Shown here piece by piece: positions 1,296 to 38,087 of a stretch of 64,000 nucleotides of DNA. The DNA lies in NCBI RefSeq assembly GCF_014204975.1, contig NZ_JACHMM010000001.1, forward strand, positions 2,480,001 to 2,544,000. The letters are read 5' to 3'. Within the stretch, counting starts at the first letter, position 1; every line of letters begins with the position of its first letter. The notes below the pieces were generated by a model, which worked only from the letters and a program-made list of their open reading frames with translations, was not told where the DNA came from and did not search any database. This stretch comes from Jiangella mangrovi (lineage in GTDB: Bacteria; Actinomycetota; Actinomycetes; Jiangellales; Jiangellaceae). The translations under genes were made by a program, and so were the position numbers.

Positions 1296-2843
1296 TCAGT
1301 TCTCCAAATCGGGAGCTTGCGAGGGGTCTGCGGGTCCCTGAGCGGCGCCGTCGTCCTCGCCGACCTGGTGCCGGTCGATCTCCGCGCTGGTCTGGCCGAG
1401 GCCGCCGAGGGTGAGGTCGTCCCAGGCCACGAGCGCTTTCGTCTCCGGATCGAAGTACAGGACCGAGAGATCGACCGGAGTGGGATCTTCGTCACGTAGG
1501 CCACGCAGCCCGGCGCCGCCGGTGGAGCCCTGGACCATGACCCGGGTGCCCTCGTCGAGGACGTAGGTGTCGCGTTTGTGCGCGTGACCCGAGAGCACCA
1601 GTGGCGCGATCCCGTCGAACAGCTCGGCGTTGCTGGGGTCGTGGAAGACGATGACGTCCGGGGGCGGATCGAGCGCGGCCGCCTCGTCGGCGAACTCCTC
1701 GGTGCCCTCCTGGAGCTGCTCGTCGAAGACGCCGCGGACGGACTTGTCCGGGGTGAAGCGCGGGTCCGGTGCGCCCATGAACCGCAGCCCGCCCACCTCG
1801 GCGGGCTCGCCGTCCAGGACGACGGCGTTGGGTGCGGCGGCGACGGCGGCGGCGGTGGCGACGGAGTCGTGGTTGCCCTTGACGAACACGTAGGGCCGGC
1901 CGAGGTCGGCGATGGGCCGCACGTAGGAGTTCTCCAGCGGCGTGCCCTGGTCGACGATGTCGCCGCTGTCGACGATGACGTCGACGTCGTACTGGTCGGC
2001 GACGGAGTCGATGACGTCCCAGGCGGCCGGATTGAGGTGCAGGTCCGACACGTGCAGGACGCGGATGGTGCCGTCGGTGGGCTGGAACGTCTGCAGGTTG
2101 AGGGTGGTGTCGTAGACGGCGGCCACGTTGGCGACGAACCCGGCCAGCTGGTCGGCGTAGGCGTCGAAGTTGGTCGCGATGTCCTCGGCGTTGCCGATCA
2201 GCTGCGGCGCCGCCGCCAGCGGCCCGGTGTAGGCGGGCTCGCGGACGGACTCGGGGTCGTACGTCAGGGCCGCCAGCCCGTACGAGCCCAGCACGGCCCC
2301 CGTCGCGACGCCGGCCGCCAGCAGCGTCCGCCGCACCGACCGCAGCACCAGCGCCGCGGCCAGCGCGCCCCCGATGACGGCGGTGAGCGCCGCCCGCACG
2401 GCGGCGTCGACCAGGACGTCCTGGATGCCGTTGGTGATCTGGTCGTCCAGGCTCGACAGCGAGTACGGGTCGGCGACGTAGCCGCTGAGCCCGTCGAGGT
2501 CGACCTGGCGGACCGAGATGTCCAGCGTCACCGGCCCGGAGTGGGTGTCGAGGACGACGGCGCCGACGGGGTCGAGATGGATGACCGACTCGCCGGTGAA
2601 CGCCGGCCGGAAGGCGACGTCGATGGCCAGCGGCCCGACGTAGGCCTGTGTGGTGCCGGCGACCATGAGCGCGACCCACGCGCCGGCCAGCGCCAGCACG
2701 ACCGGACTCGCCCAGGTGAAGAGCCGGCGCAGCCACGACGGCCACGTGGCGGGACGCGTGAGGTCCCGCCACGTGTGCCGCCGCACCGGTTCGCCCGGCG
2801 GGCTCGTCTCCGTCACCACGTCCACGCTTCGTTGGTAACACAT
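1296..2843 (-). CDS. Membrane-anchored metallophosphoesterase
   Basis: 515 residues if started at 2843. A start at the GTG nine codons later is also possible. Hydrophobic segments lie near residues 46-64, 150-168 and 171-193. A calcineurin-like phosphoesterase domain follows, with all metal-binding blocks: HVSDLH (264-269), GDIVD (294-298), GNHD (323-326) and GHAH (419-422). It should be a two-metal phosphodiesterase or phosphatase held at the membrane; substrate unknown. The acidic C-terminal 35 residues look disordered. It is divergent from the small zincin gene, with about 50 bp between the starts, and lies upstream of the tRNA unit on the same strand. Confidence 0.88.
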   Translation of the reverse strand: MCYQRSVDVVTETSPPGEPVRRHTWRDLTRPATWPSWLRRLFTWASPVVLALAGAWVALMVAGTTQAYVGPLAIDVAFRPAFTGESVIHLDPVGAVVLDTHSGPVTLDISVRQVDLDGLSGYVADPYSLSSLDDQITNGIQDVLVDAAVRAALTAVIGGALAAALVLRSVRRTLLAAGVATGAVLGSYGLAALTYDPESVREPAYTGPLAAAPQLIGNAEDIATNFDAYADQLAGFVANVAAVYDTTLNLQTFQPTDGTIRVLHVSDLHLNPAAWDVIDSVADQYDVDVIVDSGDIVDQGTPLENSYVRPIADLGRPYVFVKGNHDSVATAAAVAAAPNAVVLDGEPAEVGGLRFMGAPDPRFTPDKSVRGVFDEQLQEGTEEFADEAAALDPPPDVIVFHDPSNAELFDGIAPLVLSGHAHKRDTYVLDEGTRVMVQGSTGGAGLRGLRDEDPTPVDLSVLYFDPETKALVAWDDLTLGGLGQTSAEIDRHQVGEDDGAAQGPADPSQAPDLEN

Positions 2844-2893
2844 TTCCCGGACCTGAATCGGCCCGTCCCGGTTCGGCAGGCGAGACTGGACCC

Positions 2894-3244
2894 GTGCTGG
2901 AGCTGACCGAGACGGAGTTCGAACGGCTGGTGTCCGAGGCGATCGACGAGATCCCGCCGGAGCTCGCCCAGATGATGGACAACGTGGTGATCCTGATCGA
3001 GGACGAGGCTCCGGACGACGCGCCGGAGGTGCTCGGGCTCTACGAGGGCACCCCGCTGACCGAGCGCGGCGAGTGGTACACCGGCGTGCTGCCGGACACC
3101 ATCAGGCTGTTCCGGCTGCCGATCCTGCGCATCTGCGACACGCCCGACGACGCCGTCGAGGAGGTGCTGATCACGGTCGTGCACGAGGTGGCGCACCACT
3201 TCGGCATCGATGACGACCGCCTGCACGAGCTGGGGTGGTCGTGA
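2894..3244 (+). CDS. Small zincin-like metallopeptidase family protein
   Basis: 116 residues, GTG start. The sequence ends in VVHEVAHHFGIDDDRLHELGW, an HExxH zinc site followed by the conserved GIDDDRL block. This is the signature of the widespread bacterial metallopeptidase family of about 110-120 residues (PF06262-type zincin). The acidic N-terminal half (LIEDEAPDDAPEVLGLYEG) also fits that family. It is probably a cytoplasmic soluble protein; the physiological substrate of this family is not known. It is divergent from the metallophosphoesterase. Confidence 0.85.
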   Translation: MLELTETEFERLVSEAIDEIPPELAQMMDNVVILIEDEAPDDAPEVLGLYEGTPLTERGEWYTGVLPDTIRLFRLPILRICDTPDDAVEEVLITVVHEVAHHFGIDDDRLHELGWS

Positions 3245-3467
3245 CGTGCTCGTCCGATGGACGAGGCTGGGGGTGGTTCGGGCAACGGGCCGGGAACGCC
3301 TCTCGGCGCAACGGCCGCTCGTAGCGGCTATAAGTGGGACCCGGGGTTACCACGGCCCGCCGCCCAGCGAGAGCCCCGAAGGGCCGTCGCCAGTACCTGA
3401 AACTACCTGATGTCCGTGGTTGTTCCCAGCCTTCTCGCGTGGGAAGGATCACCTTGACGATCACCGG
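3245..3467. other. Intergenic region between two convergent genes
   Basis: 223 bp between the zincin gene (forward) and the FetB-type permease (reverse). It has no credible ORF. Small inverted repeats are visible, such as GGCCGCTCGTAGCGGC around 3321 and TTCCCA/TGGGAA around 3423-3447, the latter possibly part of the permease terminator. Nothing else recognised. Confidence 0.5.
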
Positions 3468-4211
3468 TCAGGGCCGGACGATCACGCCCCGGGCCACCAG
3501 CTCGATGGTCAGGGCGACGGCGATCGCCTCGATGGCCAGCAGCGCGACCAGCACGAACAGCTGGACGGCGCCCGCCTGGATCGGGTCGGCGCCGCCGATG
3601 AGCATGCCGACGAACGCGCCCGGCAGGACCACCAGCCCGACCGTGCGGGTCTGGTCGAGGACGGGGATCAGCGCGGTCGCCGCCTGGGGCCGGCCGATCT
3701 CCAGGGCGGCGTCGCGGGGCAGCAGGCCGACCGACAGCGCGGCCTCTACCTCACCCCGCCGGGCCGCCAGCTCGTCCAGTGCCCGCCGCCCGGCCAGGGC
3801 CGCCGACGTCATGGCGCCACCGATGAGGATCCCGGCGACGGCGATGACGGCCAGCGGCGTCGTGGGCAGCACTCCCACCGCCAGCAGCGCCGTCACGACC
3901 AGCAGCGGCCCGCTCGCCACGGGCACGGCCGCCCACCGCCAGGACCGGTCGCGCGTCATCCGCCGCCCGGCCGTCACGGTCGCCGTCGCCAGCATCACCA
4001 GCAGGAACGCGGCCACCAGCGGCTCGACCTCGACGACGGCGGCGAGCACCAGCGCGACGCCGGTGAGCTGGACCACCGCCCGCAGCGCGGCCGTGACGAC
4101 GGCGCGGTCGTGCCCGAGCCGGGCCGCGACGCTCACCGCGACGGCGACCACCACGAGGACCGCCATCGCGACACCCAGGGCCGGCCCGACCGGCAGCAGC
4201 GTCGACGACAT
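3468..4211 (-). CDS. fetB: FetB/YbbM-type ABC transporter permease (UPF0014)
   Basis: About 247 residues from the ATG at 4211; an in-frame ATG at 4223 is an alternative and neither has a clear Shine-Dalgarno. It is extremely hydrophobic, with about seven predicted membrane segments. GRRALDELAARRGEVEAALSVG, LLPRDAALEIGRPQAATALIP and the segment TVGLVVLPGAFVGMLIGG are the conserved cytoplasmic loop and following helix of FetB, an inner-membrane protein linked in E. coli to iron export and oxidative-stress resistance. The partner ATPase FetA is not adjacent. It is divergent from the cobalamin adenosyltransferase, with only 33 bp between starts. Confidence 0.82.
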   Translation of the reverse strand: MSSTLLPVGPALGVAMAVLVVVAVAVSVAARLGHDRAVVTAALRAVVQLTGVALVLAAVVEVEPLVAAFLLVMLATATVTAGRRMTRDRSWRWAAVPVASGPLLVVTALLAVGVLPTTPLAVIAVAGILIGGAMTSAALAGRRALDELAARRGEVEAALSVGLLPRDAALEIGRPQAATALIPVLDQTRTVGLVVLPGAFVGMLIGGADPIQAGAVQLFVLVALLAIEAIAVALTIELVARGVIVRP

Positions 4212-26564: not shown

Positions 26565-29500
26565 TCAGTCCAGCGGGTAGGCGCGGATCACCTCCTGCTC
26601 GAGCCGGGTCCCGTCGCCCTCGGCATCGATGCGCAGCGACACGTGCTCGGCGTCCTTCGGGTGCTTGACGGTGACGGCGTACGTCCCGCTCCCGGCGGGG
26701 CCGCTGGGCCGGACCACGGCGGGCCGCCAGCTGTCGCCGTCGTCGAACGACACCTCGACGCGGACCCGGCGCAGCGACGGCGGCGGCGCGCCCACCTGCC
26801 CGCCCACGGTGAGGTCGAACTGGAACGTGCGGCCCGACGGGGCATGGTTCAGCGAGTCCAGCGCCACGTCGTACGACGCGAACAGCAGCGGCACGAACGC
26901 GCAGTTGCGGTGGCCGCCGTCGGTGCAGCGGTACCAGTCCGGCAACGCGCCCATCCCCGAGGACGGGGCCGCCGACCGGAACGTCCACGCCGTCGTCGAC
27001 CGGGTCCCCCAGCTCCACGGCGCGTCGGACCAGGCGTCGATCTCGAGCCGGTACTCCGAGTCCGCCGCGACCGCCGGCAGCACGCCGCGGCCGGTCCGAC
27101 GGCTGACCACCAGCTCGTCGTCGCGGTAGAGGCGGGTCGCCGAGTTCTCCCACCGGGTGTCCCAGGCGCCGTAGTGGCCGTCACCGGAGTCGGCGAAGTC
27201 CTCGATCCAGAGGAACAGCTCGTCGGCGTCGCGGCAGGCCGGGCAGGGGATGCCCATGCGGTCCTGGTCGAGCACCTCGCGTCGCGGCGACGGCACGAAC
27301 GGCCCGCCGAACCAGGTGTCCTCGACCTCGTCGCCGGCCGACAGGTACCGCAGCCGGTCGCGCATCATCCGGCTGAGGATCACGTCGGCGGTCTCGTAGC
27401 CGGCGACCTGCTTCAGCCAGAGCATGCCGGGTGACGCCGTCACGTACTCGGTCCGCTCGACGGGCGCGCGGAAGTAGCGGAAGGAGTCGAAGGACCAGTC
27501 CTGCCAGGGCGCGAACGAGGCGTTGACGTCGGCGACCGAGCGCTCCGGCGCGTCGGAGTGGTAGGTCGACGAAACGGTGGCGAGGTCGTCCGGCCCAACC
27601 ACCTGCGACAGGTCGGTCCCGACCCCGCCGTCCGAGTCGAAGCGCAGGTCGTAGAGGTACGGACTGTCCGGCGTCGAGTGCACCGTCACGGCGGACCCGT
27701 TCCGCGCCAGCAGCGCCTCCGCCTCGCCGATGTCCAGTGCGGCGGCCGGGATGGGCAGCCCGCGCTCGACGACGCCGGCGAACGGGTAGCCGGACCGGCT
27801 GTAGAGCAGCGCGAGCTCGGCGCCGGCCTCGGCGACGGCCGTGATCTGCTCGCTCCAGAGCCCGCCGGTCGCCTCGACCAGGGCGATCTTCCCTTCGAGG
27901 TCGACGGCGGCCAGCTCGGCCGGGGTGGCCTCGCCGGCGTCGACGACGTCCCACCGGTACCGGCCCTCGGGCAGCTCCGGCGCGTAGACGAAGTACTCCG
28001 GCTCGAACGCGGGCAGTCCGGCGCCCTCGACGACGATGTCCGGCGCGGCCAGCGAGAGCGCCGAGACCAGGTGGAACCCGCCCTTCGTGACCTGCTCGGT
28101 CGGCGTCGCGTACATGTCGGTGAACGGCTCGCCGAGCAGGTAGCGGTAGTGCATCGACTCGCCGGTGACGGGGAAGCGCCAGAACTCCAGCTTCGCCGAG
28201 ACGCCCTCGGCGGGCCGGCCGACGTCGGCGGTGATCGGGACCGCCGTGCGCCCGTCCAGGACGACGCTCGCCCCGCCCGGCGCGACCTCGATCTGCGGGT
28301 CGCCGGCGAAGGTGTAGGTGTACCGGTCGTCGTCGATCTCGGTCATGATGCTCAGCGCACTGTACGTCCCCGGTGGCACGCGCACGGTCGCCTGGCCGCG
28401 CGCGTCGAGGTTCGGGAACGACAGGTGCGTCGCGGAGTCGTCGACGTTGCCGATCTGCACGGTCGCGCCGCGGTTCGGGACGCCGGTGCGGTCCAGCACG
28501 GTGACGGTCAGCTCGTAGACCTCGGGCTCCTTGTTCAACCCGAGCGGCAGCGAGACGCTCACGCCGCCGGGACCCGTGCCGGTGACGAAGCCGCTGTACA
28601 GGCCCGCGGCGCCGAGCGAGGGGTCGAGGGTGACGTCGACGGCGGCCGTGCCGTTCGCGGGGACGGTGACCGACGACGCGCCGAGCGTGATCATCCCGGC
28701 CGGCGCAGGCGTGCCCGCCGCACCGCCGACGGTGGCCGACGCCGTGAGCTGCAGCTCGACGGGCGCGGACGTCGCGTTCGAGAACGTGGCGGTGCGGACG
28801 ATCGGCTCCAGCTCGGTCTGCGGGTACGGCAGGTAGCCGAAGTTCAGCGGCGCCGGCCCGGCGAACACGCCCTGGGCGACGGCGGTCGCGACGTCCAGCC
28901 GACCGCCGCCCTGCTGGTAGACGGTGAGGCCGTCGCGCGGGATCGCCGTCGACACCAGCGCGGCCTTGACCTGCTCCGGCGCCCAGTCCGGGTGCTGCTG
29001 GCGGACGATCGCGGCGGCGCCGGCGACGTGCGGCGTGGCCATCGAGGTGCCCGACGCGCTGGTGTAGAGGTCGTCGACGGGCGTGCCCATGGCGGTGCCG
29101 GCGGCCCGGGCGGCGACGATGTTCGTGCCGGGCGCGGTGATGTCCGGCTTGATCGCGTGGTCGCCGACGCGCGGGCCGCGCCCGGACGACGCCGCGAGCT
29201 CGTCGGTCTTCGTGACGTTGCCGACGGTGAGTGCGGTGTCGGCGCTGCCCGGGTTGGTCAGGGAGTAGTCGCCGGGCCCGTAGTTGCCGCCGGCGATGAC
29301 GAACAGCGCGCCGGTCTCGGCGGTCAGCTCGTTCACGGCCTGGCTGAGCGGGTCGGTGCCGTCGCTGGGGTAGCCGCCGAGGCTCATGCTGACGACGTCG
29401 GCGCCGTTCCGCGCGGCCCACTCCATGCCGGCGATGACCCACGAGTCCTGGCCGCTGCCGCCGTCGTCGAGGACCTTGCCGATCATCAGGTCCGCGCCCG

Positions 29501-30401
29501 GCGCGACGCCGCGGCGCGCGCCGTCGGACCCCGCGCCGCTGCCGGCGACCGTCGCCGCCACGTGGGTGCCGTGGCCGTGCCGGTCGACCGGGGTGCCGCC
29601 GCCGGTGAAGTCCTGCTGCTCGGAGATGCGCCCGGCGACGTCCGGGTGCTCGGCGTCGATGCCGGTGTCGAGGACGGCGACGGTGGTGCCGGTGCCGTCG
29701 AACCCCGCGTCCCAGGCCTCCGGTGCGCCGATCATCGGGACGCTGACGTCGAGCGTGGCGGCGACGGTGCCGTCGAGCCAGACGGCGTCGACGGCGGGGT
29801 CGGCCCAGATCGCGGACCAGAAGTCGTCGGCCGCGTCCTTGTCGACGTCCACCGCGGCGCCGTCGATGCTCGGCAGCGGCAGGGTGGCGTCGCTCGCGGG
29901 CAGTGCCTCGGCCCTGGTCGCGACCGTCGTGGCCGACCGGGCCGCGGCGCCGTCGTAGGTGACGATGACCGGCAGCTCGGTGGCAGCGTCGTCGGCATAG
30001 CCGCTCTCGATCAGCCGTGTCACGTTGAACAGCTGGTCGTCGACCGTGCCGGCGCGAACCTGAGGCGCAACCCTGGTGGGGACGACGTAGGTGTCGCCGT
30101 CCAGCTCGTAGGCCTCGACGGCGCCCCCGTCCGTGGCGTCGACGGCGACCGACGTCTTCCCGCCGGTGGTGGTGACGTGGACGACGTCGCCGGTGACGAG
30201 GGTGACCCGGGTGGCGTTCTCGGCGGTGGCCGGCGCTGTCGTGGGGACGGCGTCGGCCTGCGGTTCCGCCGTGGTCGCGGACGTCGCCGGTGCCGCCCCG
30301 GTGGTCAGGGTGGTGGTCAGGGCGACGGCCAGCGCGGCGGCGGACCAGGAGACCCGTCGTCGGCGGGAGCGGGAACGGGACACGGGCGCAATCGGGGGCA
30401 T
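26565..30401 (-). CDS. Large secreted subtilase (S8 peptidase), paralogue 2
   Basis: 1278 residues from ATG at 30401 behind GAGAGGACC. A signal peptide lies within residues 1-42. Residues 60-215 form a propeptide-like region. The catalytic domain has Asp245 (VAVLDTGID), His277 (RHGHGTHVA), oxyanion Asn373 (IAGGN) and Ser453 (SGTSMATPHVAG). The following beta-rich domains include FEPEYFVYAPELPEG and a PA-like segment (LEGKIALVEATGG). A CPACRD cysteine pair lies near residue 1055. It is an extracellular serine protease or a similar cell-surface enzyme. The upstream paralogue's stop lies 56 bp away, so the two are probably one transcription unit. Confidence 0.92.
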   Translation of the reverse strand: MPPIAPVSRSRSRRRRVSWSAAALAVALTTTLTTGAAPATSATTAEPQADAVPTTAPATAENATRVTLVTGDVVHVTTTGGKTSVAVDATDGGAVEAYELDGDTYVVPTRVAPQVRAGTVDDQLFNVTRLIESGYADDAATELPVIVTYDGAAARSATTVATRAEALPASDATLPLPSIDGAAVDVDKDAADDFWSAIWADPAVDAVWLDGTVAATLDVSVPMIGAPEAWDAGFDGTGTTVAVLDTGIDAEHPDVAGRISEQQDFTGGGTPVDRHGHGTHVAATVAGSGAGSDGARRGVAPGADLMIGKVLDDGGSGQDSWVIAGMEWAARNGADVVSMSLGGYPSDGTDPLSQAVNELTAETGALFVIAGGNYGPGDYSLTNPGSADTALTVGNVTKTDELAASSGRGPRVGDHAIKPDITAPGTNIVAARAAGTAMGTPVDDLYTSASGTSMATPHVAGAAAIVRQQHPDWAPEQVKAALVSTAIPRDGLTVYQQGGGRLDVATAVAQGVFAGPAPLNFGYLPYPQTELEPIVRTATFSNATSAPVELQLTASATVGGAAGTPAPAGMITLGASSVTVPANGTAAVDVTLDPSLGAAGLYSGFVTGTGPGGVSVSLPLGLNKEPEVYELTVTVLDRTGVPNRGATVQIGNVDDSATHLSFPNLDARGQATVRVPPGTYSALSIMTEIDDDRYTYTFAGDPQIEVAPGGASVVLDGRTAVPITADVGRPAEGVSAKLEFWRFPVTGESMHYRYLLGEPFTDMYATPTEQVTKGGFHLVSALSLAAPDIVVEGAGLPAFEPEYFVYAPELPEGRYRWDVVDAGEATPAELAAVDLEGKIALVEATGGLWSEQITAVAEAGAELALLYSRSGYPFAGVVERGLPIPAAALDIGEAEALLARNGSAVTVHSTPDSPYLYDLRFDSDGGVGTDLSQVVGPDDLATVSSTYHSDAPERSVADVNASFAPWQDWSFDSFRYFRAPVERTEYVTASPGMLWLKQVAGYETADVILSRMMRDRLRYLSAGDEVEDTWFGGPFVPSPRREVLDQDRMGIPCPACRDADELFLWIEDFADSGDGHYGAWDTRWENSATRLYRDDELVVSRRTGRGVLPAVAADSEYRLEIDAWSDAPWSWGTRSTTAWTFRSAAPSSGMGALPDWYRCTDGGHRNCAFVPLLFASYDVALDSLNHAPSGRTFQFDLTVGGQVGAPPPSLRRVRVEVSFDDGDSWRPAVVRPSGPAGSGTYAVTVKHPKDAEHVSLRIDAEGDGTRLEQEVIRAYPLD

Positions 30402-30457: not shown

Positions 30458-33400
30458 TCAGCTGGTGAGCCGGTAGGCGCGCTCGATCGTCTGGACGACG
30501 GAGTCGCCGGCGGCCGTCCACGCCTCGGTGCGCAGCCAGACGTGGCCGTTGGTCGCGTCGAGGTCCGGGTGCGGGACGGTGACCCGGTAGTCGCCGCTGG
30601 CGCGGCGGCCGTCGGGCCGGACCTGGGTGGGCCGCCAGCTGGCGCCGTCGTCGACGGAGAACCAGACCCGCAGCCGGTCGGCGGCCGGACCGCCGCCGGG
30701 TGCCGCGGCGTGCAGTCCGATGGTGTGTCGCCGGCCGGCCGGTGCGCTGTTGACCAGGTCGAGGCCGAGGTCCCACCGCAACTGCACGAGCGGCTGGAAC
30801 GCGCACGGGTCGGTGAGCGCCGCGACCGGGCACTCGTAGGCCTCCGGCAGCTGTCCGGCCGTCGGCGGCGTGGACGTGAACTCCCATTCCGTCGCGATCC
30901 GGGTGGCGAGGCCGTCGGGCGGGCCGGGCTGGACGTAGTCCATGGTCAGCCGGTAGTCGCCGGTGCCGGGCGGCAGCTGGAACGACTGGTTGGTCGAGCC
31001 GCGGACCGGGAGCTCCTCGTCGCCGCGGAACAGCCGGACGGCCGGCTGGTCGAACCAGGCGTGCTGGTAGTGCCCGCCGCCGTCGAGGCGGTACTGGCCG
31101 GTGACGAACCGGTCGCCCTGGCGGCAGAACGTACAGCGCAGCGCGGTCGGGTAGGCGCCGGCGACGTCCAGTGCGCCGTAGTGGACCGGCGACTCGAACC
31201 AGCGCTCGGCCGGCAGCCGCTCGCCGGGCTCGAACACGTTCCACGACCGCAGCGCGGCGCCCTCCAGCGTCGTCTCGCGTAGCCAGCGCAGCGACGGGCC
31301 GGTGGCGCCGACCAGCTCGGTGCGCGCGCTGCCGCCCCAGAGGCCGAGCGCGAGCTGCGTGCTGTCCGGCATGACGGGGCTGAACGCGAACCAGGCGTGC
31401 GTGCCCTCGTGGCCGGGCGTGTCGGTGTGGTAGCGGCTGGTCAGAGTGGTGAGGTCGGCGTCGTCGATGACGGCGGGGCCGTCGGCCGGGAAGCCGCCCT
31501 CGTGGCCGAGCCGCAGGTGGTAGACGCGCTCCGGCGAGCGCTGCGCGTCGAGGTCGAGCCGGCTGACCCGACCGGCCGCGATCGCCTGCCGCAGCGCGTC
31601 GCCGTCGGCCTGGCTGAGACCGAGCTGCAGCACCGGTGTCGCCTGCAGCTGGATGCCCAGCGCGCCCGGGGTGTCGGCGTAGAAGAGGAGGCCCGCGACG
31701 CCGGCCTCCGCGGCCGCCGTCGTGACCCGCTGGATCTCGTTGAGCGCGTAGGCGTAGCCGAACGGCTCGCCGGCGGGGATCCGGATCCGGACCAGCGCCA
31801 GGGCGTCGCGGGCGCTCTCGAGGTCGGGGGACGTCCCGTCGCCCGAGTCGCCGGCGTCGACGACGGGCAGCCTGCGGTCGCCGTCGAGCGCGGGGCCCGC
31901 GAGGTGCGGCCAGTACTCGGGCGTGGCCGCGAACCCGGGTCCGCGCAGCTCGGCCAGCGTCGAGCCGAGCGTCCACTTGGTGTACGACTCGGTCCGGCCC
32001 AGCTGCGGAGCGGGGGTCGGGGTCGTGTAGAGCGTCCACTCGCTGGACTGGTCGAACAGCGCGCCGACGCCGAACAGCCGGCCGTCGGGGGTACTGCGGA
32101 GCACGCCGATCTCGCCCATGAGCAGGTCCACCGGCTCGCCGACGTCGGGGTTGCGCAGGACGGCGTCGCGGGCGTCGAGGTGGGTGGCGGTGTCGGCGTG
32201 GACGTCGAGCTCGCTGGCGACGGCGACGGTCGACTCCGTCGCCTGCAGGTCCCACGTCGTGATCTGCGCGTACACGTCGTAGACGCCCTCGGCGACGTCG
32301 AGGCTGGCGCGGCCCTCGGAGTCGGTCCAGGCGAAGTGGTTCCAGGTGCGGAACGGGTCGTTGGCGACGAAGCCGGGGTCGACCTTGACCACCCAGACCG
32401 GCAGGCCGGGGTCGGCCGGGGCGCCGCGGCGGTTCGTCGCCGCGACGTCGAGCGTATGGGTGACGCCTGCCTCGTAGAGGCTCCACGGGCTCCGCACGCT
32501 CACGCCGTCGTCGCTGGTGGCGGTCACGACGCCGGAGTAGACGCCCGCGTCGAGGACGGTCGGGTCGGCGGTGAGGTCGACGGTGGCGGTGCCGTTCGCG
32601 GGGACGATGAGCTGGGTGGCACCGAGCCGGACGTCGCCGGCCGCGACCGTGCGGCCGTCCCAGCCCTGTCCGGTGACCGCGAGGTCCAGGGCGACGGGCG
32701 AGGCGGTGGCGTTGCGGTAGGTCAGGGTGCGGGTGACCGGCGCCGTGGCCGGGTCCGGGATGCGGCCGAAGTCGAGGCTCGCGGGTCCGTACACGCCCTG
32801 CTCGACCGCGCGGGCGACGTCGACCCGGCCGGCGCCCTGCTGGAACGGGGTATACGCGCCGGGCGCGGCCGTCGAGGCGAGCGCGTCCCTCAGCTCGGCG
32901 TAGCCCCAGTCGGGGTGCGCCTGGGCGAGCAGCGCGGCGGCGCCGGCGACGTGCGGCGTGGCCATCGAGGTCCCGTTGGCGCTGGTGTGCAGGTCGCTGA
33001 CCGGCGTGCCCATGCTGGTGCCGGCCGCGCGGGCGGCGACGATGCCGACGCCCGGCGCGGTGAGGTTGGGCTTGATCGCGGCGTCGCCCCGGCGCGGGCC
33101 GCGGTTGCTGAAGTCGGCGAGTGTGTCGGTGTCGTCGACGGCGCCGACGGTGAGCGCGCTGGTGGCGGCGCCGGGTGTGCCGACGGCGGCGTCGCTGTAG
33201 TCGTTGCCCGCCGCGACGACGAAGAGCGTGCCGGTCTCGGCGGACAGCGCGTCGACGGCGAGGCTGCCGGGGTCGGTGCCGTCGGTCGCGGGCGCGCTGA
33301 GGCTGAGGTTGACCACGTCGGCGCCGTTCTGCGCGGCCCACTCCATGCCGTCGATGGCCCACGACAGCTGGCCGGTGCCCCCGCTGGTCAGGACCTTGCC

Positions 33401-34279
33401 GATCATGAGGTCGGCGCCGGGCGCGACGCCGGGACTCCCGCCGGGCGCGGCGCCGGTGCCCGCGACCGTCGCGGCGACGTGGGTGCCGTGCCCGTGGCCG
33501 TCGACGGCGTCCGCGTCGGTCGTGAAGTTCCGCGTCGCGGTGATCCGGCCGGCTAGGTCCGGGTGCCCGGCGTCGACCCCGGTGTCGAGGACCGCCACGG
33601 TGACGCCATCGCCGTCGTAGCCCGCTTCCCATGCCTCCGGGGCGCCGATGTGCGGGACGCTGACGTCGAGGTCGGCCCGGATCGTCGCGTCCAGCCAGAC
33701 GTTCGCGACGCCGCCGGTCAGCGAGGCGGCGCGGGAGCCCGTCGCGTCGGCCGCCGGCTCGGTGAGGTCGGCCCAGAGCCCGCTCGCATCGGCGGGGTCC
33801 AGGGCGACGGCGTCGATCGACTCGAGCGTCCGCACGACCGGCGTGCTGCGCAGCCGGGCCCTCACGCCGTCGTACCGGACGATGACCGGCGGCGGCCCGC
33901 CCGGCTCCAGCTGCGCGACGTCGAACAGCCGCCGGTCCACCGTCCCGCTCGCGACCAGCCCGAACGCGTCCGAGGGCAGCACGTAGTGGCTGTCGCCGTC
34001 GGACACGCTGGTGAACGTGACCGGGCGGCCGTCCTCGCGCGGGGCCGGGGTGACGGCGTAGGTCCGCTCGCCGCCCGGCTCCTGCGCGACGGTGACGACG
34101 TCGCCGGTGAGGAGGGTGACGACGGTGGGCGCTTCAGCGCCGGTCGTGGCGGGAGCGGTCGCGGGGGCGCTGGTGGCCGGGGTGCTCGCCGCGGCCGGCA
34201 GCAGGGCGGCGACCACCACGGCGACGGCGGTTCCGGTCACGACGAGGTGGCGGGGACGGCTCGGGCGGCGAGGTCGCAC
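30458..34279 (-). CDS. Large secreted subtilase (S8 peptidase), paralogue 1
   Basis: 1273 residues, GTG start behind the strong site AGGAGG. The signal peptide is LVVTGTAVAVVVAALLPAAAST. The same architecture as the downstream gene is easily followed: TLLTGDVVTV, catalytic Asp232 (VAVLDTGVD), His264 (GHGHGTHVA), Asn359 (VAAGND) and Ser438 (NGTSMATPHVAG). A long C-terminal half carries a cysteine pair (CTFCRQGD), SFQLPPGTGDYRLTMDY and VRVWFSVDDGASW-like modules. The pair arose by tandem duplication. The dyad at 34305-34337 sits 26-58 bp upstream of the start. Confidence 0.92.
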   Translation of the reverse strand: MRPRRPSRPRHLVVTGTAVAVVVAALLPAAASTPATSAPATAPATTGAEAPTVVTLLTGDVVTVAQEPGGERTYAVTPAPREDGRPVTFTSVSDGDSHYVLPSDAFGLVASGTVDRRLFDVAQLEPGGPPPVIVRYDGVRARLRSTPVVRTLESIDAVALDPADASGLWADLTEPAADATGSRAASLTGGVANVWLDATIRADLDVSVPHIGAPEAWEAGYDGDGVTVAVLDTGVDAGHPDLAGRITATRNFTTDADAVDGHGHGTHVAATVAGTGAAPGGSPGVAPGADLMIGKVLTSGGTGQLSWAIDGMEWAAQNGADVVNLSLSAPATDGTDPGSLAVDALSAETGTLFVVAAGNDYSDAAVGTPGAATSALTVGAVDDTDTLADFSNRGPRRGDAAIKPNLTAPGVGIVAARAAGTSMGTPVSDLHTSANGTSMATPHVAGAAALLAQAHPDWGYAELRDALASTAAPGAYTPFQQGAGRVDVARAVEQGVYGPASLDFGRIPDPATAPVTRTLTYRNATASPVALDLAVTGQGWDGRTVAAGDVRLGATQLIVPANGTATVDLTADPTVLDAGVYSGVVTATSDDGVSVRSPWSLYEAGVTHTLDVAATNRRGAPADPGLPVWVVKVDPGFVANDPFRTWNHFAWTDSEGRASLDVAEGVYDVYAQITTWDLQATESTVAVASELDVHADTATHLDARDAVLRNPDVGEPVDLLMGEIGVLRSTPDGRLFGVGALFDQSSEWTLYTTPTPAPQLGRTESYTKWTLGSTLAELRGPGFAATPEYWPHLAGPALDGDRRLPVVDAGDSGDGTSPDLESARDALALVRIRIPAGEPFGYAYALNEIQRVTTAAAEAGVAGLLFYADTPGALGIQLQATPVLQLGLSQADGDALRQAIAAGRVSRLDLDAQRSPERVYHLRLGHEGGFPADGPAVIDDADLTTLTSRYHTDTPGHEGTHAWFAFSPVMPDSTQLALGLWGGSARTELVGATGPSLRWLRETTLEGAALRSWNVFEPGERLPAERWFESPVHYGALDVAGAYPTALRCTFCRQGDRFVTGQYRLDGGGHYQHAWFDQPAVRLFRGDEELPVRGSTNQSFQLPPGTGDYRLTMDYVQPGPPDGLATRIATEWEFTSTPPTAGQLPEAYECPVAALTDPCAFQPLVQLRWDLGLDLVNSAPAGRRHTIGLHAAAPGGGPAADRLRVWFSVDDGASWRPTQVRPDGRRASGDYRVTVPHPDLDATNGHVWLRTEAWTAAGDSVVQTIERAYRLTS

Positions 34280-34454: not shown

Positions 34455-34961
34455 ATGCGGATGGAACCGCTCGTGTACCGCGCGCCGCTGCGGTCCCGGC
34501 GGCCGGACGTGCCCGACGGCGCCGGGGTCGAGCGGGCACTGGCGGCGGGCGTGTGCGGGCTGGGAGGTGAGCTGCCGCCGTCGTCGGCGCCCGGCTCGGT
34601 CCTTGCGGCGGCCGCGGCGCTGGAGCGGGTCGACGGCGAGCGTGCGGCTCGGCGGCTGCTGCGGTTCGCGGCCGTGCCCGACGGCGCCTTCGCCTGGACC
34701 CGCGACGTCGACGGCGCCTACCTGCTCGGGAGGCTCGACGGGCCGTACCGCTACGACGCGAGCGCGCCGGCCCGGGCGGCCGACCTGGTGCACGTGCGGC
34801 CGTGCCGCTGGCTGCCCGCGCCCGTCGACGCTGCGCGGGTGCCGGCCGCGGTGGTGGCGACGTTCGGGCGGGGCGGGCGGAACCTCCAGCGGATCCGCGA
34901 CGCCGCCGTCGGTGCGCAGACGGCGGAGCTCTGGTCAGGCGGCGGGGCCGGCGTCGAGTAG
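34455..34961 (+). CDS. Conserved actinobacterial protein of unknown function
   Basis: 168 residues from ATG at 34455 behind GCGAGGAGCGG. FAWTRDVDGAYLLGRLDGPYRYD, ADLVHVRPCRWLPAPVDAARVPAAVVATFGRGGRNLQRI is a conserved core seen in actinomycetes: a small beta-barrel-like module with several Trp and Arg residues. The function is not known to me. It has no signal peptide or membrane helix. Its last 27 bp overlap the convergent WYL regulator gene. Confidence 0.72.
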   Translation: MRMEPLVYRAPLRSRRPDVPDGAGVERALAAGVCGLGGELPPSSAPGSVLAAAAALERVDGERAARRLLRFAAVPDGAFAWTRDVDGAYLLGRLDGPYRYDASAPARAADLVHVRPCRWLPAPVDAARVPAAVVATFGRGGRNLQRIRDAAVGAQTAELWSGGGAGVE

Positions 34962-35924
34962 TCGCTGCGCCAGCTCGCGACTGCGGGTCGCCAGCTCAGG
35001 CGGGTCGAGGACCTCGAACGCGTGCCCCAGCAACAGCACGTGCATGAGCACGAGGTCGAGGTTCGCGGCGCCGCTGAGCACCTCGCAGCGCTCGCCGTCG
35101 AGCGGCCGGACGACCGCCGCCGACGCCGGGACCTGGGCGCGCACCGTCGTCGCCGGCGCGTGCACGAGGAAGCGGGCCTGACGCGGATAGACCCGGCTCG
35201 CGACGCTCTCCTGCACGAACGTGGCCGCGTCGGGCGCCTCGCGCGGGCGGAACCGCCAGGTGCGCGCCGTCACGTCCGTCATCCGGTCGACGCGGAAGCT
35301 GCGCCAGTCGTCGCGGTCGAGGTCGTACGCGAGCAGGTACCAGCGCCGGTCGGAGGCGACCAGCCGGTACGGCTCGACCCGGCGCCGTCGCGCCTCGCTC
35401 CCGGACCGCCCGGCCGGGTAGTCGAACCCGGTCTCGACCTCGTCGCGGCAGGCCCGGGCCAGCGTCATCAGCAGGCCGGGGTCGACCGGCGCGCGGCCGC
35501 CGCCGAAGGACTCGACCGAGCCGGAGAGCGCGCGCACCTCGCGCTGCAGGCGGGCGGGCAGTACCCGGTCGAGCTTGGTCAGCGCCCGCAGCGCGGCGTC
35601 GCCCGCTCCGGCGACGGCGCCACCCGCGCCGCCCGCGCCCGCGGTCGCGAGGAGGGAGAGGGTCGTCGCGATCGCCTCCTCGTCGTCCAACAGCAGCGGC
35701 GGCAGGTCCTGTCCCGCGCCGAGCTGGTACCCACCGCCGACGCCCTGGCTCGCGTGCACCGGGTAGCCGAGCGCGCGCAGCCGCTCGACGTCGCGCCGCA
35801 CCGTCCGCGGCGTGACGTTCAGTCGCTCGGCCAGCTCGGGCCCGGTCCAGACCTGGCGCTGCTGCAGCAGCCCGAGCAGGGTCAGCACCCGCTCCGTCGT
35901 CCCCCGCTCCGCGTCGGCCGTCAC
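34935..35924 (-). CDS. WYL-domain (YafY-type) transcriptional regulator
   Basis: 329 residues, GTG start. Residues 10-65 form a DeoR/HTH_11 helix-turn-helix (VWTGPELAERLNVTPRTVRRDVERLRALGYPV). The WYL domain (RRVEPYRLVASDRRWYLLAYDLDRDDWRSFRVDRM, about 185-220) senses small molecules or nucleic acids, and the C-terminal WCX-type extension completes the architecture. It is divergent from the three-gene alarmone-type operon, with 38 bp between the starts. It is therefore the obvious candidate regulator of that operon as well as itself. Confidence 0.9.
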   Translation of the reverse strand: MTADAERGTTERVLTLLGLLQQRQVWTGPELAERLNVTPRTVRRDVERLRALGYPVHASQGVGGGYQLGAGQDLPPLLLDDEEAIATTLSLLATAGAGGAGGAVAGAGDAALRALTKLDRVLPARLQREVRALSGSVESFGGGRAPVDPGLLMTLARACRDEVETGFDYPAGRSGSEARRRRVEPYRLVASDRRWYLLAYDLDRDDWRSFRVDRMTDVTARTWRFRPREAPDAATFVQESVASRVYPRQARFLVHAPATTVRAQVPASAAVVRPLDGERCEVLSGAANLDLVLMHVLLLGHAFEVLDPPELATRSRELAQRLLDAGPAA

Positions 35925-35962: not shown

Positions 35963-37225
35963 ATGCCGGACAGCGACGGTGGCAGCGACCGGCCCATCGC
36001 GGACGGCGTCGAGGGCCTCCGTGCGCTGGCCGGCCACGAGGTCCCGGCCGGCGTCGACGCTGTGGGTGACGGCGTCGCGGGCCGGCTGGAGGGGCTACGG
36101 CGACAGCTCGCTTCCGTCGATGGGTCGCCCGCCCTCGACGACGCGGAACGGCGGATGCGCGGCGATCTCGACCGGCTGCGCGGCGAGGTCTCGGCCGCGC
36201 TGTCCGCCGTCGCCGACGAGCTGGACGAGCTGCGGCGACCGGACCCGGGCGGGCCGGGGGGATCGGGTGCGCCGGTCGCGTTCTCGGCGCCGACGGCGGC
36301 GGCCTCGGCCGGTGTCCATCCCGAGGTCGCCGCCGTCGTGGCCAGGCTCGTGGCCGACACGGCGCATCCGCTCGACCTGACCCGTGCGCTCGCCGACCCG
36401 CGCCGGCGCGACGCCACGCTGGCGATCCTCGCCGAGCTCGCCGAAGGACGGCTCCTGTCGGGCGGGACGCTCGAGGAGTACCGCGCCGAGCACCCCGGCC
36501 GCGGCCCGCTGTTCACTCCCGTGCCGGCGTCGGCTCTGACCGACGCGCAGGGCCGCAACCGCCTCGCGGTCTTCCTCGACGCCGCCCGCCGCCTGGACCC
36601 GGCGCGTGACGTCGGCGCCGATCCCACGCCGTCGCAGCTGGCACTCCTCGACGACTACGGCCGGCGTCTGGTCGAGGAGGTCGAGCCGCACGTGCGGGCC
36701 GAGGTCGAGGCGCTGGCCGCCCCCTTCGCGGACGCCGCCGTCAGCCTGCGGGTCAAGGGCCCGCGCTCGATCCTCGAGAAGGTGACCCGCATGTCTGCCG
36801 GCCGCGAGCACCGTCCGGCCCGCCCCGGCTACCACGCGGGCGCGGTGGTCGACGCCGTCGGCGCCCGCATCACCGTCGACGGGACCGCCGCGTTGGCGAC
36901 CCTCTGTGCCGCCGTGACCAGCCATTTCGGGATCGGCGACGGTGGCCGCGTGCTGGATCTGGAGAACCGCTACACCGATCCCAAGCCGCACAACCCCGCC
37001 TACCGCGTCGTGCCGCTCATCGTCGCGGTGGACGTCGGCGGGCTGGCGTACACGTGCGAACTACAGTTGAGTACTCGCCGGGCGTCGGTCGCGGCCGACC
37101 TCGAGCACAACACCGTCTACAAGCCGTACGTGGCCGTCACCGAGCGCGAGCAGGCGCGGGTGCTGGCCATGCAGGCCGAGGCGGCCGCCCTCGACCAGGA
37201 CGAGACCAGGAGCGATGCGCGGTGA
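35963..37225 (+). CDS. RelA/SpoT synthetase-like protein with long N-terminal extension
   Basis: 420 residues from ATG at 35963. Residues about 235-392 align with the RelA/SpoT nucleotidyl (pyrophosphokinase) domain: R263-V-K265-x3-S269-I-x2-K273, Asp297 in VVDAVGAR, a G-loop-like RYTDPKPHNPAYR with Tyr347, Glu366 in CELQLST, and LEHNTVYKPY. The residues needed for ATP and metal binding are present, though the usual H after the G-loop is replaced. Residues 55-95 look coiled-coil, and the region up to 230 matches nothing I know. If active it would make (p)ppGpp or a related alarmone, or pyrophosphorylate another target. The stop overlaps the next start (GTGA). Confidence 0.75.
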   Translation: MPDSDGGSDRPIADGVEGLRALAGHEVPAGVDAVGDGVAGRLEGLRRQLASVDGSPALDDAERRMRGDLDRLRGEVSAALSAVADELDELRRPDPGGPGGSGAPVAFSAPTAAASAGVHPEVAAVVARLVADTAHPLDLTRALADPRRRDATLAILAELAEGRLLSGGTLEEYRAEHPGRGPLFTPVPASALTDAQGRNRLAVFLDAARRLDPARDVGADPTPSQLALLDDYGRRLVEEVEPHVRAEVEALAAPFADAAVSLRVKGPRSILEKVTRMSAGREHRPARPGYHAGAVVDAVGARITVDGTAALATLCAAVTSHFGIGDGGRVLDLENRYTDPKPHNPAYRVVPLIVAVDVGGLAYTCELQLSTRRASVAADLEHNTVYKPYVAVTEREQARVLAMQAEAAALDQDETRSDAR

Positions 37226-37485
37226 CCGATACGAACCACGCGTGGATCTGGATCGGGCACGTGGCCGGCGCCGACGGCGAGCTCGCCGCGGCCTTCGTCA
37301 TCGACGAGCGGCAGCACGCCGACGCCCAGGCCGCGCAGGCCGCCGTCACGGCCGCCGCCGAGGAACTGCGCCGTCGCGGCATCGCGCACGAGCTCGAGCA
37401 CGTGCGGGTCCGCCTCGACGAGCCCGCCCAGCCGTTGCCCAGCTGGACCGACTACCAGGCGTCCCTGCCCGCCGAGGACGCATGA
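37222..37485 (+). CDS. Small protein (87 aa) between synthetase-like and hydrolase genes
   Basis: GTG at 37222 overlaps the upstream stop, and its own stop overlaps the HD gene start (ATGA). The sequence opens WIWIGHVAGADGELAAAFVID, then an Ala/Gln-rich helix (HADAQAAQAAVTAAAEELRRRG), then a short acidic end LPSWTDYQASLP. No family recognised and no membrane segment. Its position inside a coupled synthetase-hydrolase operon suggests a regulatory or complex-forming role. Confidence 0.7.
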   Translation: MTDTNHAWIWIGHVAGADGELAAAFVIDERQHADAQAAQAAVTAAAEELRRRGIAHELEHVRVRLDEPAQPLPSWTDYQASLPAEDA

Positions 37486-38087
37486 GGACGTTCGGCGCCT
37501 GGGCGTCGTTCGACGATGCGCGGGTCGCGTTGACCGGACGGTTGCCCGACGGCGACCTCGACCGGCTGGGCGCGGTGTACGCGTTCGCGGCCGAGCGGCA
37601 TGCGGACCAGACCCGGCCGGCCGGCGAGCCTTACACTCGGCACCTGCTCGAGGCCATGGAGATCCTGGCAGTCGCGCTGGACGTCGACGACGCCGACCTG
37701 CTCGCCGCCGCCCTGTTGCACGACGCCGTCGAGGACACCCCCACGACGTCGGCGGAGGTCGAGGAGCGCTTCGGCCCCCGCGTCGCCGAACTGGTCGCCC
37801 ACGTCACCAAGCCGCCGTCGTCTCCGTCGGCGCCCGACGAGGACCGCGCCGCCGTTCGGGAGGGCTATCTCAGCGGGCTGCGTGACCTGCCCGCCGACGC
37901 GCTGCTGCTCAAACTGGCCGACCGCTACAGCAACGTCCAGCGCCTGCACACCCACCCGCGGCCGGCGAAACAGCGCGCCTACTACGCCGAGACCCGCCGC
38001 TACCTCGTCCCGCTGGCCGCCGTCGACCCGCGGCTGGAGGCGCTCTTCGCCGACTGGGAGCGCACGTACGAGTACCTCAGTCGGTGA
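37482..38087 (+). CDS. RelA/SpoT-type HD-domain (p)ppGpp hydrolase, stand-alone
   Basis: 201 residues. YTRHLLEAMEIL (His54), ALLHDAVEDTPTT (His80-Asp81, Glu84-Asp85), RFGPRVAELVAHVTK and LLKLADRYSNVQRL (Asp147, Asn151) are the complete manganese-binding and catalytic set of the RelA/SpoT hydrolase domain, in a protein with no synthetase domain. It should remove the 3' pyrophosphate from guanosine (or adenosine) alarmones. The length matches small alarmone hydrolases. It is coupled to the two upstream genes and overlaps the convergent gene by 11 bp. Confidence 0.88.
   Translation: MRTFGAWASFDDARVALTGRLPDGDLDRLGAVYAFAAERHADQTRPAGEPYTRHLLEAMEILAVALDVDDADLLAAALLHDAVEDTPTTSAEVEERFGPRVAELVAHVTKPPSSPSAPDEDRAAVREGYLSGLRDLPADALLLKLADRYSNVQRLHTHPRPAKQRAYYAETRRYLVPLAAVDPRLEALFADWERTYEYLSR

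What the first reader, a model, noticed from the sequence alone, without database searches (positions are those of the whole stretch)
35963..38087. Split alarmone module: RelA/SpoT synthetase-like protein, unknown 87-aa protein and stand-alone HD hydrolase in one coupled operon
Seen: three genes overlapping by 4 bp each, the first with the key RelA/SpoT synthetase residues (R263, K265, S269, K273, D297, Y347, E366), the last with the complete RelA/SpoT HD hydrolase set. Known: bifunctional Rel carries both domains in one chain; small alarmone synthetases with separate hydrolase antitoxins (the FaRel/ATfaRel type from actinobacteria) are toxin-antitoxin systems. Inference: this may be an alarmone-based toxin-antitoxin or defence module. 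The synthetase-like protein has a 230-residue N-terminal region that matches nothing I know, the central protein is unknown, and a WYL regulator is divergent, a combination I do not recognise.
Basis: partly seen in the sequence, partly recalled or inferred. Interest (0 to 1): 0.8.

Follow-up and report, generated by a model that had tools for sequence, protein, structure and literature searches.

The report
Alarmone-making toxin with two antidotes
Three overlapping genes of an actinobacterium most likely encode a modular toxin whose working end makes alarmone-type nucleotides, followed by two antidotes, one that probably binds the toxin and one that destroys its product; it is a new variant of a known kind of weapon, with an unexplained part at its front.

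Summary
Three genes (35963-37225, 37222-37485, 37482-38087) overlap by 4 bp. Gene 1 ends in a RelA/SpoT synthetase fold with six of the seven listed residues invariant; gene 3 is a small alarmone hydrolase. The better reading is a polymorphic toxin with double immunity. Gene 1's front is homologous to the front of nuclease proteins that have a partner gene downstream. Its C-terminal 300 residues recur at the end of WXG100-type polymorphic toxins in other actinobacteria. A gene-2 homologue follows this domain in 16 of 16 distinct loci, gene 3 in 13 of 16. Between genera gene 2 diverges fastest, as expected of a binding immunity protein. Gene 3 persists in two genomes where gene 1 has decayed. 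The logic is published (Apk2/IapK/Aph1, FaRel, T7SS-linked exported synthetases), so this is a new variant of a known kind. New points: a family-restricted front domain with several different C-termini, in genomes where no EccD (T7SS) was found; the gene-2 family; an acceptor motif (VxP) matching neither the ppGpp nor the ppApp signature. Delivery and product are unknown; an intracellular toxin-antitoxin role is the main rival.

The parts
35963..37225 (+). Gene 1: 420-aa protein, proposed polymorphic toxin with a C-terminal alarmone-synthetase-like domain
35984..36235 (+). Gene 1 residues 8-91: N-terminal 'DRPI' domain, predicted helical hairpin, shared with nuclease proteins of the same bacterial family; proposed trafficking or targeting domain (function not shown)
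   Evidence: HMM of 7 nuclease-protein N-termini: 52.8 bits against 9.9 for the best shuffle; hhalign E 1.7e-21 over residues 8-109; model helices 16-49 and 55-91 at pLDDT about 54-74
36236..36316 (+). Gene 1 residues 92-118: disordered linker
   Evidence: pLDDT under 50 over residues 90-118
36317..36637 (+). Gene 1 residues 119-225: helical region conserved together with the synthetase domain in distant homologues
36638..37222 (+). Gene 1 residues 226-420: RelA/SpoT (SYNTH) fold, with R263, K265, K273, D297, Y347, E366 invariant; YRVxP in place of the YxSxH of guanosine enzymes
37222..37485 (+). Gene 2: 87-aa protein (pI 4.7), proposed toxin-binding immunity protein of a family without a Pfam match
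   Evidence: homologue next to the synthetase domain in 16 of 16 loci
37482..38087 (+). Gene 3: 201-aa small alarmone hydrolase (HD_4), proposed product-destroying immunity enzyme
34935..35924 (-). Divergent WYL-domain regulator; not directly upstream of gene 1 in four same-genus orthologous loci, probably not part of the module

Best explanation
A polymorphic-toxin locus with double immunity. Gene 1 is the toxin: a family-specific N-terminal helical hairpin (inferred trafficking part), a flexible linker, and a C-terminal alarmone-synthetase warhead that moves pyrophosphate from ATP onto a nucleotide (or the tRNA end) in a rival cell and stops its growth. Gene 2 binds the producer's own toxin and blocks its active site, like IapK of the Apk2 system. 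Gene 3 hydrolyses whatever product forms, like Aph1 or ATfaRel. Shown here: homologies, fold, conserved catalytic residues, gene order, linkage, relative divergence, decay pattern. Inferred: toxicity, binding by gene 2, hydrolysis by gene 3, export, and the nature of the acceptor.
For: (a) The N-terminal domain of gene 1 is homologous to the N-terminus of 257-292-aa proteins ending in Endonuclea_NS_2 nuclease domains (PF13930, E 5e-22 to 7e-27 in 6 of 6 scanned), each directly upstream of a ~150-aa gene that is at best weakly YezG-like. The domain also precedes an ADP-ribosyltransferase-like end (PF03496, E 0.0022, below cut-off) and two unidentified C-termini. (b) The C-terminal domain sits at the extreme C-terminus of proteins with a WXG100_2 front and Gln_amidase domains in L043 and L045; in L044 a WXG100_2 protein and the domain share one reading frame with an in-frame stop between them. 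(c) A gene-2 homologue lies directly downstream in 16 of 16 distinct full-length loci and gene 3 in 13 of 16. (d) Mean pairwise identity over 7 loci is synthetase 55%, gene 3 57%, gene 2 39%; gene 2 is the lowest in 18 of 21 pairs, the order published for Apk2/Aph1/IapK (PMC12226406). (e) Gene 1 is reduced to fragments while gene 3 stays intact in G016 and G018, a pattern of orphan immunity. (f) A longer RelA/SpoT gene (821-aa frame), presumably the housekeeping Rel, lies elsewhere.
Against: No EccD (T7SS core) in 6 of 6 genomes of the window's family searched, while 3 of 3 other genomes in the same search had it. A contractile sheath gene was found in only 2 of 11 family genomes, the window's own among them. 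No secretion domain is recognised in gene 1, so the export route is unknown; a sensor or scaffold role of the front domain is not excluded. Gene 2 has no solved structural relative, and in the three same-genus pairs it does not diverge faster than the other genes (69/72/79, 69/69/76, 83/85/81% for synthetase/gene 2/gene 3). In the class scan only 4 of 20 clear gene-3-type hydrolases lie next to a full synthetase domain and 3 next to remnants; in the other 13, all fetched, no such domain was found, so the hydrolase alone is not diagnostic. The 16 loci are not all independent (several pairs are close relatives). No activity has been measured.
Confidence: 0.65

Rival explanations
1. An intracellular toxin-antitoxin or anti-phage module: gene 1 is held silent by gene 2 and cleaned up by gene 3, and the N-terminal hairpin is a sensor that releases the toxin on infection or stress.
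For: FaRel of Cellulomonas marina has the same three roles inside one cell (PMC11782079, passages). No EccD in 6 of 6 family genomes searched. Gene 1 lacks a recognised export domain. One Streptomyces homologue lies a few genes from an 'ABC-three component system' on a plasmid.
Against: The synthetase domain recurs in WXG100-type polymorphic toxins. The front domain is shared by several unrelated ends. PADLOC gives no match for any of the three proteins, though that library is of 2023.
Confidence: 0.25
2. A non-toxic alarmone signalling pair: a small synthetase and a small hydrolase that tune (p)ppGpp, with gene 2 as regulator.
For: Catalytic residues of both enzymes are conserved. Gene-3-like hydrolases often stand without this synthetase domain nearby (13 of 13 loci fetched).
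Against: Patchy presence (full-length orthologue in 4 of 11 other same-genus genomes), toxin-type architectures of some homologues, decay with orphan hydrolase, and an altered acceptor motif.
Confidence: 0.07
3. An exported alarmone synthetase that works outside the cell, like SaEAS of Streptomyces albidoflavus.
For: SaEAS shares the fold (8vx3, Z 12.0, 177 aligned, 3.5 A).
Against: SaEAS and most of its close relatives have a Sec signal peptide and no adjacent immunity genes (PMC12691689). I see no signal peptide at the start of gene 1 (by eye, no predictor run), and two putative immunity genes follow it.
Confidence: 0.03

Closest known systems
Apk2-IapK-Aph1 (MuF polymorphic toxins of prophages)
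   Same: Toxin with C-terminal alarmone synthetase, then a small protein that binds it, then a hydrolase of the product; the binding protein is the most divergent (PMC12226406, abstract and sections 3, 16, 17, 18 read)
   Different: No MuF match in gene 1; the acceptor motif is YRVxP here, GxN there; no similarity of gene 2 to IapK could be shown; no phage record holds the domain
T7SS-linked exported alarmone synthetases, such as AaEAS of Amycolatopsis azurea
   Same: Actinobacterial C-terminal SYNTH domain that folds with about 120 upstream residues, as the 107 residues here; small downstream gene (PMC12691689, abstract, passages and sections 9 and 10 read)
   Different: AaEAS has an LXG domain and makes (p)ppGpp only; its sequence could not be compared here. 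Gene 1 has another front domain, and no EccD was found in the window's genome
RelA/SpoT-like toxin domain of ESX polymorphic toxins (Zhang et al. 2012)
   Same: Predicted alarmone synthetase toxin domain of Gram-positive polymorphic toxins (PMC3482391, passages seen)
   Different: The passages seen do not describe the double immunity or this front domain
FaRel / ATfaRel / AT2faRel toxin-antitoxin operon (Cellulomonas marina)
   Same: Toxic synthetase with one hydrolase antidote and one specific antidote (PMC11782079, passages)
   Different: There the toxin is flanked by the antidotes; here both follow it, and the toxin carries a front domain shared with nuclease proteins
EsaD/EsaG and YeeF/YezG nuclease-immunity pairs
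   Same: The proteins sharing gene 1's front domain end in a PF13930 nuclease and precede weakly YezG-like genes; the likeness to EsaD and YeeF is recalled
   Different: Different toxin domain in gene 1; no LXG domain recognised

Membership tests
RelA/SpoT (SYNTH) alarmone synthetase superfamily | SYNTH fold | tested here: met
   Residues 226-420, 5dec Z 14.6, 179 aligned, 3.2 A; best Foldseek E 2.6e-6, 5ded
   R263, K265, K273, D297, Y347, E366 invariant in 12 of 12 rows
RelA/SpoT (SYNTH) alarmone synthetase superfamily | Pyrophosphokinase activity | not testable with these tools
   Needs an enzyme assay
Small alarmone hydrolase (HD_4, Mesh1/SAH type) | HD domain with the metal and catalytic residue set (recalled), no synthetase domain attached | tested here: met
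   PF13328 E 2.8e-23; 201 aa; H54, H80, D81, E84, D85, D147, N151 invariant in 11 of 11 rows
Classical polymorphic toxin system | Constant N-terminal domain joined to different C-terminal toxin domains | tested here: met
   Front domain with nuclease and RelA/SpoT ends (firm), an ART-like end (weak) and two unidentified ends
[quoted passage not shown]
   Window and 15 further loci; immunity activity itself not tested
Classical polymorphic toxin system | Recognised secretion or trafficking domain and its export machinery | tested here: inconclusive
   No recognised domain in gene 1; EccD in 0 of 6 family genomes, 3 of 3 others; FtsK-like ATPase next to a WXG100-like gene exists elsewhere in the genome
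Apk2/IapK/Aph1 system | MuF N-terminal domain | tested here: inconclusive
   Pfam reports no MuF match in gene 1 at E up to 1; the N-terminus was not folded and searched alone
Apk2/IapK/Aph1 system | GxN syn3 motif of adenosine enzymes | tested here: not met
   YRVxP in 12 of 12 rows; motif definition from PMC12226406
Apk2/IapK/Aph1 system | Small binding immunity protein plus hydrolase downstream | tested here: inconclusive
   Order matches; hydrolase by homology; gene 2 has no solved relative and binding was not tested
T7SS (WXG/LXG) exported alarmone synthetase | WXG/LXG domain | tested here: inconclusive
   Gene 1: predicted hairpin without a WXG100 or LXG Pfam match; L043, L044, L045 carry WXG100_2
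FaRel-type toxin-antitoxin operon | Toxin gene flanked by its two antitoxin genes | tested here: not met
   Both candidate antidotes lie downstream

The most novel reading that the evidence does not exclude
The 'DRPI' hairpin defines a family-restricted polymorphic-toxin class that reaches other cells by a route other than the known ESX (EccD-type) machinery, and its alarmone warhead, with YRVxP at the acceptor site, uses an acceptor or specificity different from both the (p)ppGpp and the (p)ppApp toxins, neutralised by a new immunity family (gene 2) plus a hydrolase.
Probability: 0.2. Interest if true: 0.72.

Novelty: new variant of a known kind. Interest (0 to 1): 0.48.

Why it matters
If true, it adds an actinobacterial branch to the alarmone toxins with a conserved pair of antidotes, one specific and one enzymatic, and gives a compact, testable three-gene unit. 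It also points to an unexplained front domain shared by nuclease and alarmone-synthetase proteins in genomes where no EccD gene was found, which would make the question of how such toxins travel directly testable. The altered acceptor motif may help to show what decides between GTP, ATP and tRNA as substrate.

Tried and rejected
Single-sequence comparison of gene 1 with solved structures gave nothing useful; the profile found YwaC (6fgk) at E 1.5e-4. PADLOC: no matches for the three proteins. Viral contigs: 138 stretches matched a pattern, none confirmed. Phage records: no match to the synthetase domain. Gene 2 fold search: no match with E under 0.001 and best Z 3.3, so no family could be named; a Tis1/IapK likeness is not excluded. 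Weak NCBIfam hits of gene 2 (elongation factor Tu among them; a sorting-domain model for the L023 homologue at E 6e-4, below cut-off) were set aside as chance. The EccB search was uninformative because no control rang; for EccD the 14 named controls were silent too, but three genomes in the same search matched. The single WXG100 hit in the window's genome is below the cut-off. I looked for relatives of AaEAS in 80 genomes of the genus of L048 (Amycolatopsis by its record title): 3 carry the domain, L048's genome included; none could be named AaEAS. I considered a WYL-regulated operon and dropped it. The front domain of the G002 orthologue is only weakly supported (18.7 bits against 9.1 for the best shuffle; E 0.057 in the background set), and its match is by construction.

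Counts: the 16 loci are the window, G002, G006 (L023 = L040), G007 (L024 = L041), G008, L042-L048, L070, L071, L162 and L163; three S. clavuligerus plasmid records were counted once; partial or other matches (L049/L065, L050/L067, L056, L057, L066) were left out. Gene 3 is missing next to the toxin in G002 (one copy elsewhere), L043 and L045 (none in their genomes at E up to 1e-35). Of the 24 front-domain matches, 12 are rows of the model itself; five are RelA/SpoT proteins, fifteen look like nuclease proteins by eye (six scanned with Pfam; some of the fifteen look split or incomplete), one is ART-like, two have unidentified ends, one (L104) gave no called gene. The gene-1 remnant in L108 was recognised by eye only.
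Full report
OBSERVATION. Codon statistics are close to those of the window's genes, least so for the first 118 codons of gene 1. The window lies in a 7.16-Mb, one-contig genome. The same-genus genomes G006 and G007 have contigs of the same lengths as Jiangella aurantiaca and J. endophytica records that hold the same locus, so the window is probably Jiangella. A longer RelA/SpoT gene (821-aa frame, presumably the housekeeping Rel) lies elsewhere (C1:3900349), so the module is not the cell's basic alarmone control.

GENE 1, C-TERMINUS. Pfam RelA_SpoT scores just under its cut-off (25.2 of 27 bits). Several homologues score above it (L043 37.4, L048 38.8, L070 48.5 bits), others below (L045 22.4, L047 26.4, L163 21.0 bits). 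The AlphaFold2 model (10 sequences, mean pLDDT 81; 90 or more in 18 of the 19 ten-residue blocks from 191 to 380) matches small alarmone synthetases over 226-420: 5dec Z 14.6 (179 aligned, 3.2 A), the exported synthetase 8vx3 Z 12.0 (177 aligned, 3.5 A), Tas1 6ox6 Z 10.1 (162 aligned, 4.1 A). R263, K265, K273, D297, Y347 and E366 are invariant in 12 of 12 rows; S269 is not. Aligned to YwaC, its GYRSLH stretch becomes (Y)RVVP, and Y-R-V-x-P is invariant in the family. According to PMC12226406, SxH marks guanosine enzymes and GxN adenosine enzymes, so VxP fits neither and the acceptor cannot be read from sequence. Residues 119-225 are conserved with this domain in distant homologues (the L044 row starts later), reminiscent of AaEAS, whose SYNTH domain folds with about 120 upstream residues (PMC12691689).

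GENE 1, N-TERMINUS. Residues 16-49 and 55-91 form a predicted helical hairpin at modest confidence (block pLDDT about 54-74; only three rows of the alignment cover it), followed by a disordered linker. The first search of relatives already gave matches of residues 6-119 to other proteins. Their loci show 257-292-aa proteins that end in Endonuclea_NS_2 nucleases (PF13930, E 5e-22 to 7e-27 in six of six scanned), each directly upstream of a ~150-aa gene. Of the three partner genes scanned, one is weakly YezG-like (PF04634 E 0.023, below cut-off, L036) and two match nothing; a 436-aa protein of similar sequence in L038 is over the cut-off. An HMM built only from seven nuclease-protein N-termini scores the window's N-terminus at 52.8 bits against 9.9 for the best of 1934 scored shuffles; among 434 called proteins it reaches E 1e-14, the best unrelated one 0.028; hhalign gives E 1.7e-21. 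A class scan found 24 matches in 11 of 393 genomes, all in two genera of the window's own family. Besides nuclease and RelA/SpoT ends, the domain occurs with an ADP-ribosyltransferase-like end (L107, PF03496 E 0.0022, below cut-off) and two unidentified ends (L108, L109). A constant front with exchangeable ends and adjacent partners is what defines polymorphic toxins.

THE SAME C-TERMINUS ELSEWHERE. The scan of genome contigs returned 11 loci, nine with most or all of the domain. In Nocardia aurantia (L043) and Jidongwangia (L045) it ends proteins of 1628 and at least 2310 aa with a WXG100_2 front and Gln_amidase domains. In Kineosporia (L044) a WXG100_2 protein and the domain share one frame interrupted by a stop. 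In Amycolatopsis (L048, L070, L071) it ends proteins with open frames of about 2130-2140 aa. In Streptomyces L042, L046 and L163 a HerA/TrwB-like ATPase gene lies upstream, overlapping by 4 bp in L163; I saw none in the 14.9-kb stretch of the S. clavuligerus plasmid, L162. It is rare: 7 of 393 class genomes at E 1e-10, two of them fragments, and 3 of 80 Amycolatopsis genomes.

GENES 2 AND 3. Of 16 distinct loci with the domain, all 16 have a gene-2 homologue directly downstream. Scores are 22-117 bits for the ten alignment members in leave-one-out tests, where the best shuffle is 6.8-12.8 bits, and 71-109 bits for six loci not in the alignment, where the best shuffle is 8.5-18.4. Close relatives are among the 16, so they are not 16 independent cases. 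Gene 3 follows in 13 of 16. Where it is missing, G002 has a copy elsewhere, and L043 and L045 have none at E 1e-35 in their genomes. In L043, L048, L070 and L071 gene 2 is part of longer proteins (342-421 aa). Mean pairwise identities over seven loci are 55% (synthetase), 39% (gene 2) and 57% (gene 3); gene 2 is the lowest in all 18 between-genus pairs but not in the three same-genus pairs. In the Apk2 system the binding immunity protein is likewise the most divergent. Gene 2 is a compact beta-beta-alpha-beta-alpha model (pLDDT 87) with no solved relative found. Gene 3 keeps the HD residues in 11 of 11 rows. In G016 and G018 the synthetase gene is reduced to fragments while the hydrolase is intact. 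Against a strict link: of 20 clear gene-3 matches in the class scan (E at or below 6.3e-43, well apart from Rel at 1e-32), 4 lie beside a full synthetase domain, 3 beside remnants, and in the other 13, all fetched, no called gene matches the domain. The hydrolase family is broader than this module.

MECHANISM. Most likely gene 1 is a delivered toxin, gene 2 its binding immunity protein and gene 3 its product-destroying immunity enzyme (0.65). The published parallels are Apk2/IapK/Aph1 (PMC12226406, abstract and four sections), FaRel with two antitoxins (PMC11782079, passages), and T7SS-linked synthetases such as AaEAS (PMC12691689); RelA/SpoT toxin domains in ESX polymorphic toxins were predicted in 2012 (PMC3482391, passages). 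A dual specific-plus-enzymatic immunity is also known for the ART toxin Bxa (PMC11699363, abstract and outline).

WHAT DOES NOT FIT. The route out of the cell is missing. EccD was found in 0 of 6 genomes of the window's family and in 3 of 3 others in the same search. A contractile sheath gene is in 2 of 11 family genomes only, the window's own included. One FtsK-like ATPase gene beside a WXG100-like gene (below cut-off) exists in the genome, far from the locus. Hence an intracellular toxin-antitoxin or defence role stays open (0.25).

NOVELTY. A new variant of a known kind. In the listings seen (25 of 32 papers, 20 of 58, 20 of 270, 8 of 11, 4 of 4) no title or abstract start describes this front domain, the gene-2 family or this locus; supplements were not searched, and subscription papers are mostly not held.

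Noticed in passing
L028:5949-7246, L036:5365-6635, L037:890-2199, L039:6052-7376, L101:2580-3820, L102:2430-3712: A family-restricted set of nuclease (PF13930) proteins with the same 'DRPI' front as gene 1 and a ~150-aa partner gene; up to six front-domain matches in one genome (G008).
   Followed up: partly
L107:2-673 (-), L108 about 2620-3950 (-), L109:3233-4980 (+): The same front domain joined to an ADP-ribosyltransferase-like end and to two unidentified ends, with possible partner genes in L108 and L109: possible new toxin domains.
   Followed up: partly
L042:2580-5018, L046:2585-5023, L163:3270-5927: A HerA/TrwB-like ATPase gene lies upstream of the synthetase protein in Streptomyces, perhaps a delivery ATPase.
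   Followed up: partly
L043:7043-8308, L048:6897-7925, L070:5137-6165, L072:5592-6359, L049:6142-6864: Large gene-2 variants carry an extra domain of no Pfam family; in L072 that domain without the gene-2 part precedes a gene-3-type hydrolase.
   Followed up: partly
L070:32-5140 and L048:532-6900: These Amycolatopsis proteins have two RelA_SpoT stretches, so a second synthetase-like domain lies upstream of the terminal one.
   Followed up: no
L110 (window genome contig 1, 138000-144500): FtsK-like ATPase (PF01580) beside a WXG100-like gene (below cut-off) although EccD was not found in this genome.
   Followed up: partly
window 26565-30401 and 30458-34240 (-): Two adjacent genes for very large proteins of 1278 and 1260 aa with subtilisin-like motifs, read by eye.
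   Followed up: no
L108:4181-4813 and L030:4929-5817: Decayed copies of gene 1 beside an intact gene 3: orphan hydrolases.
   Followed up: yes
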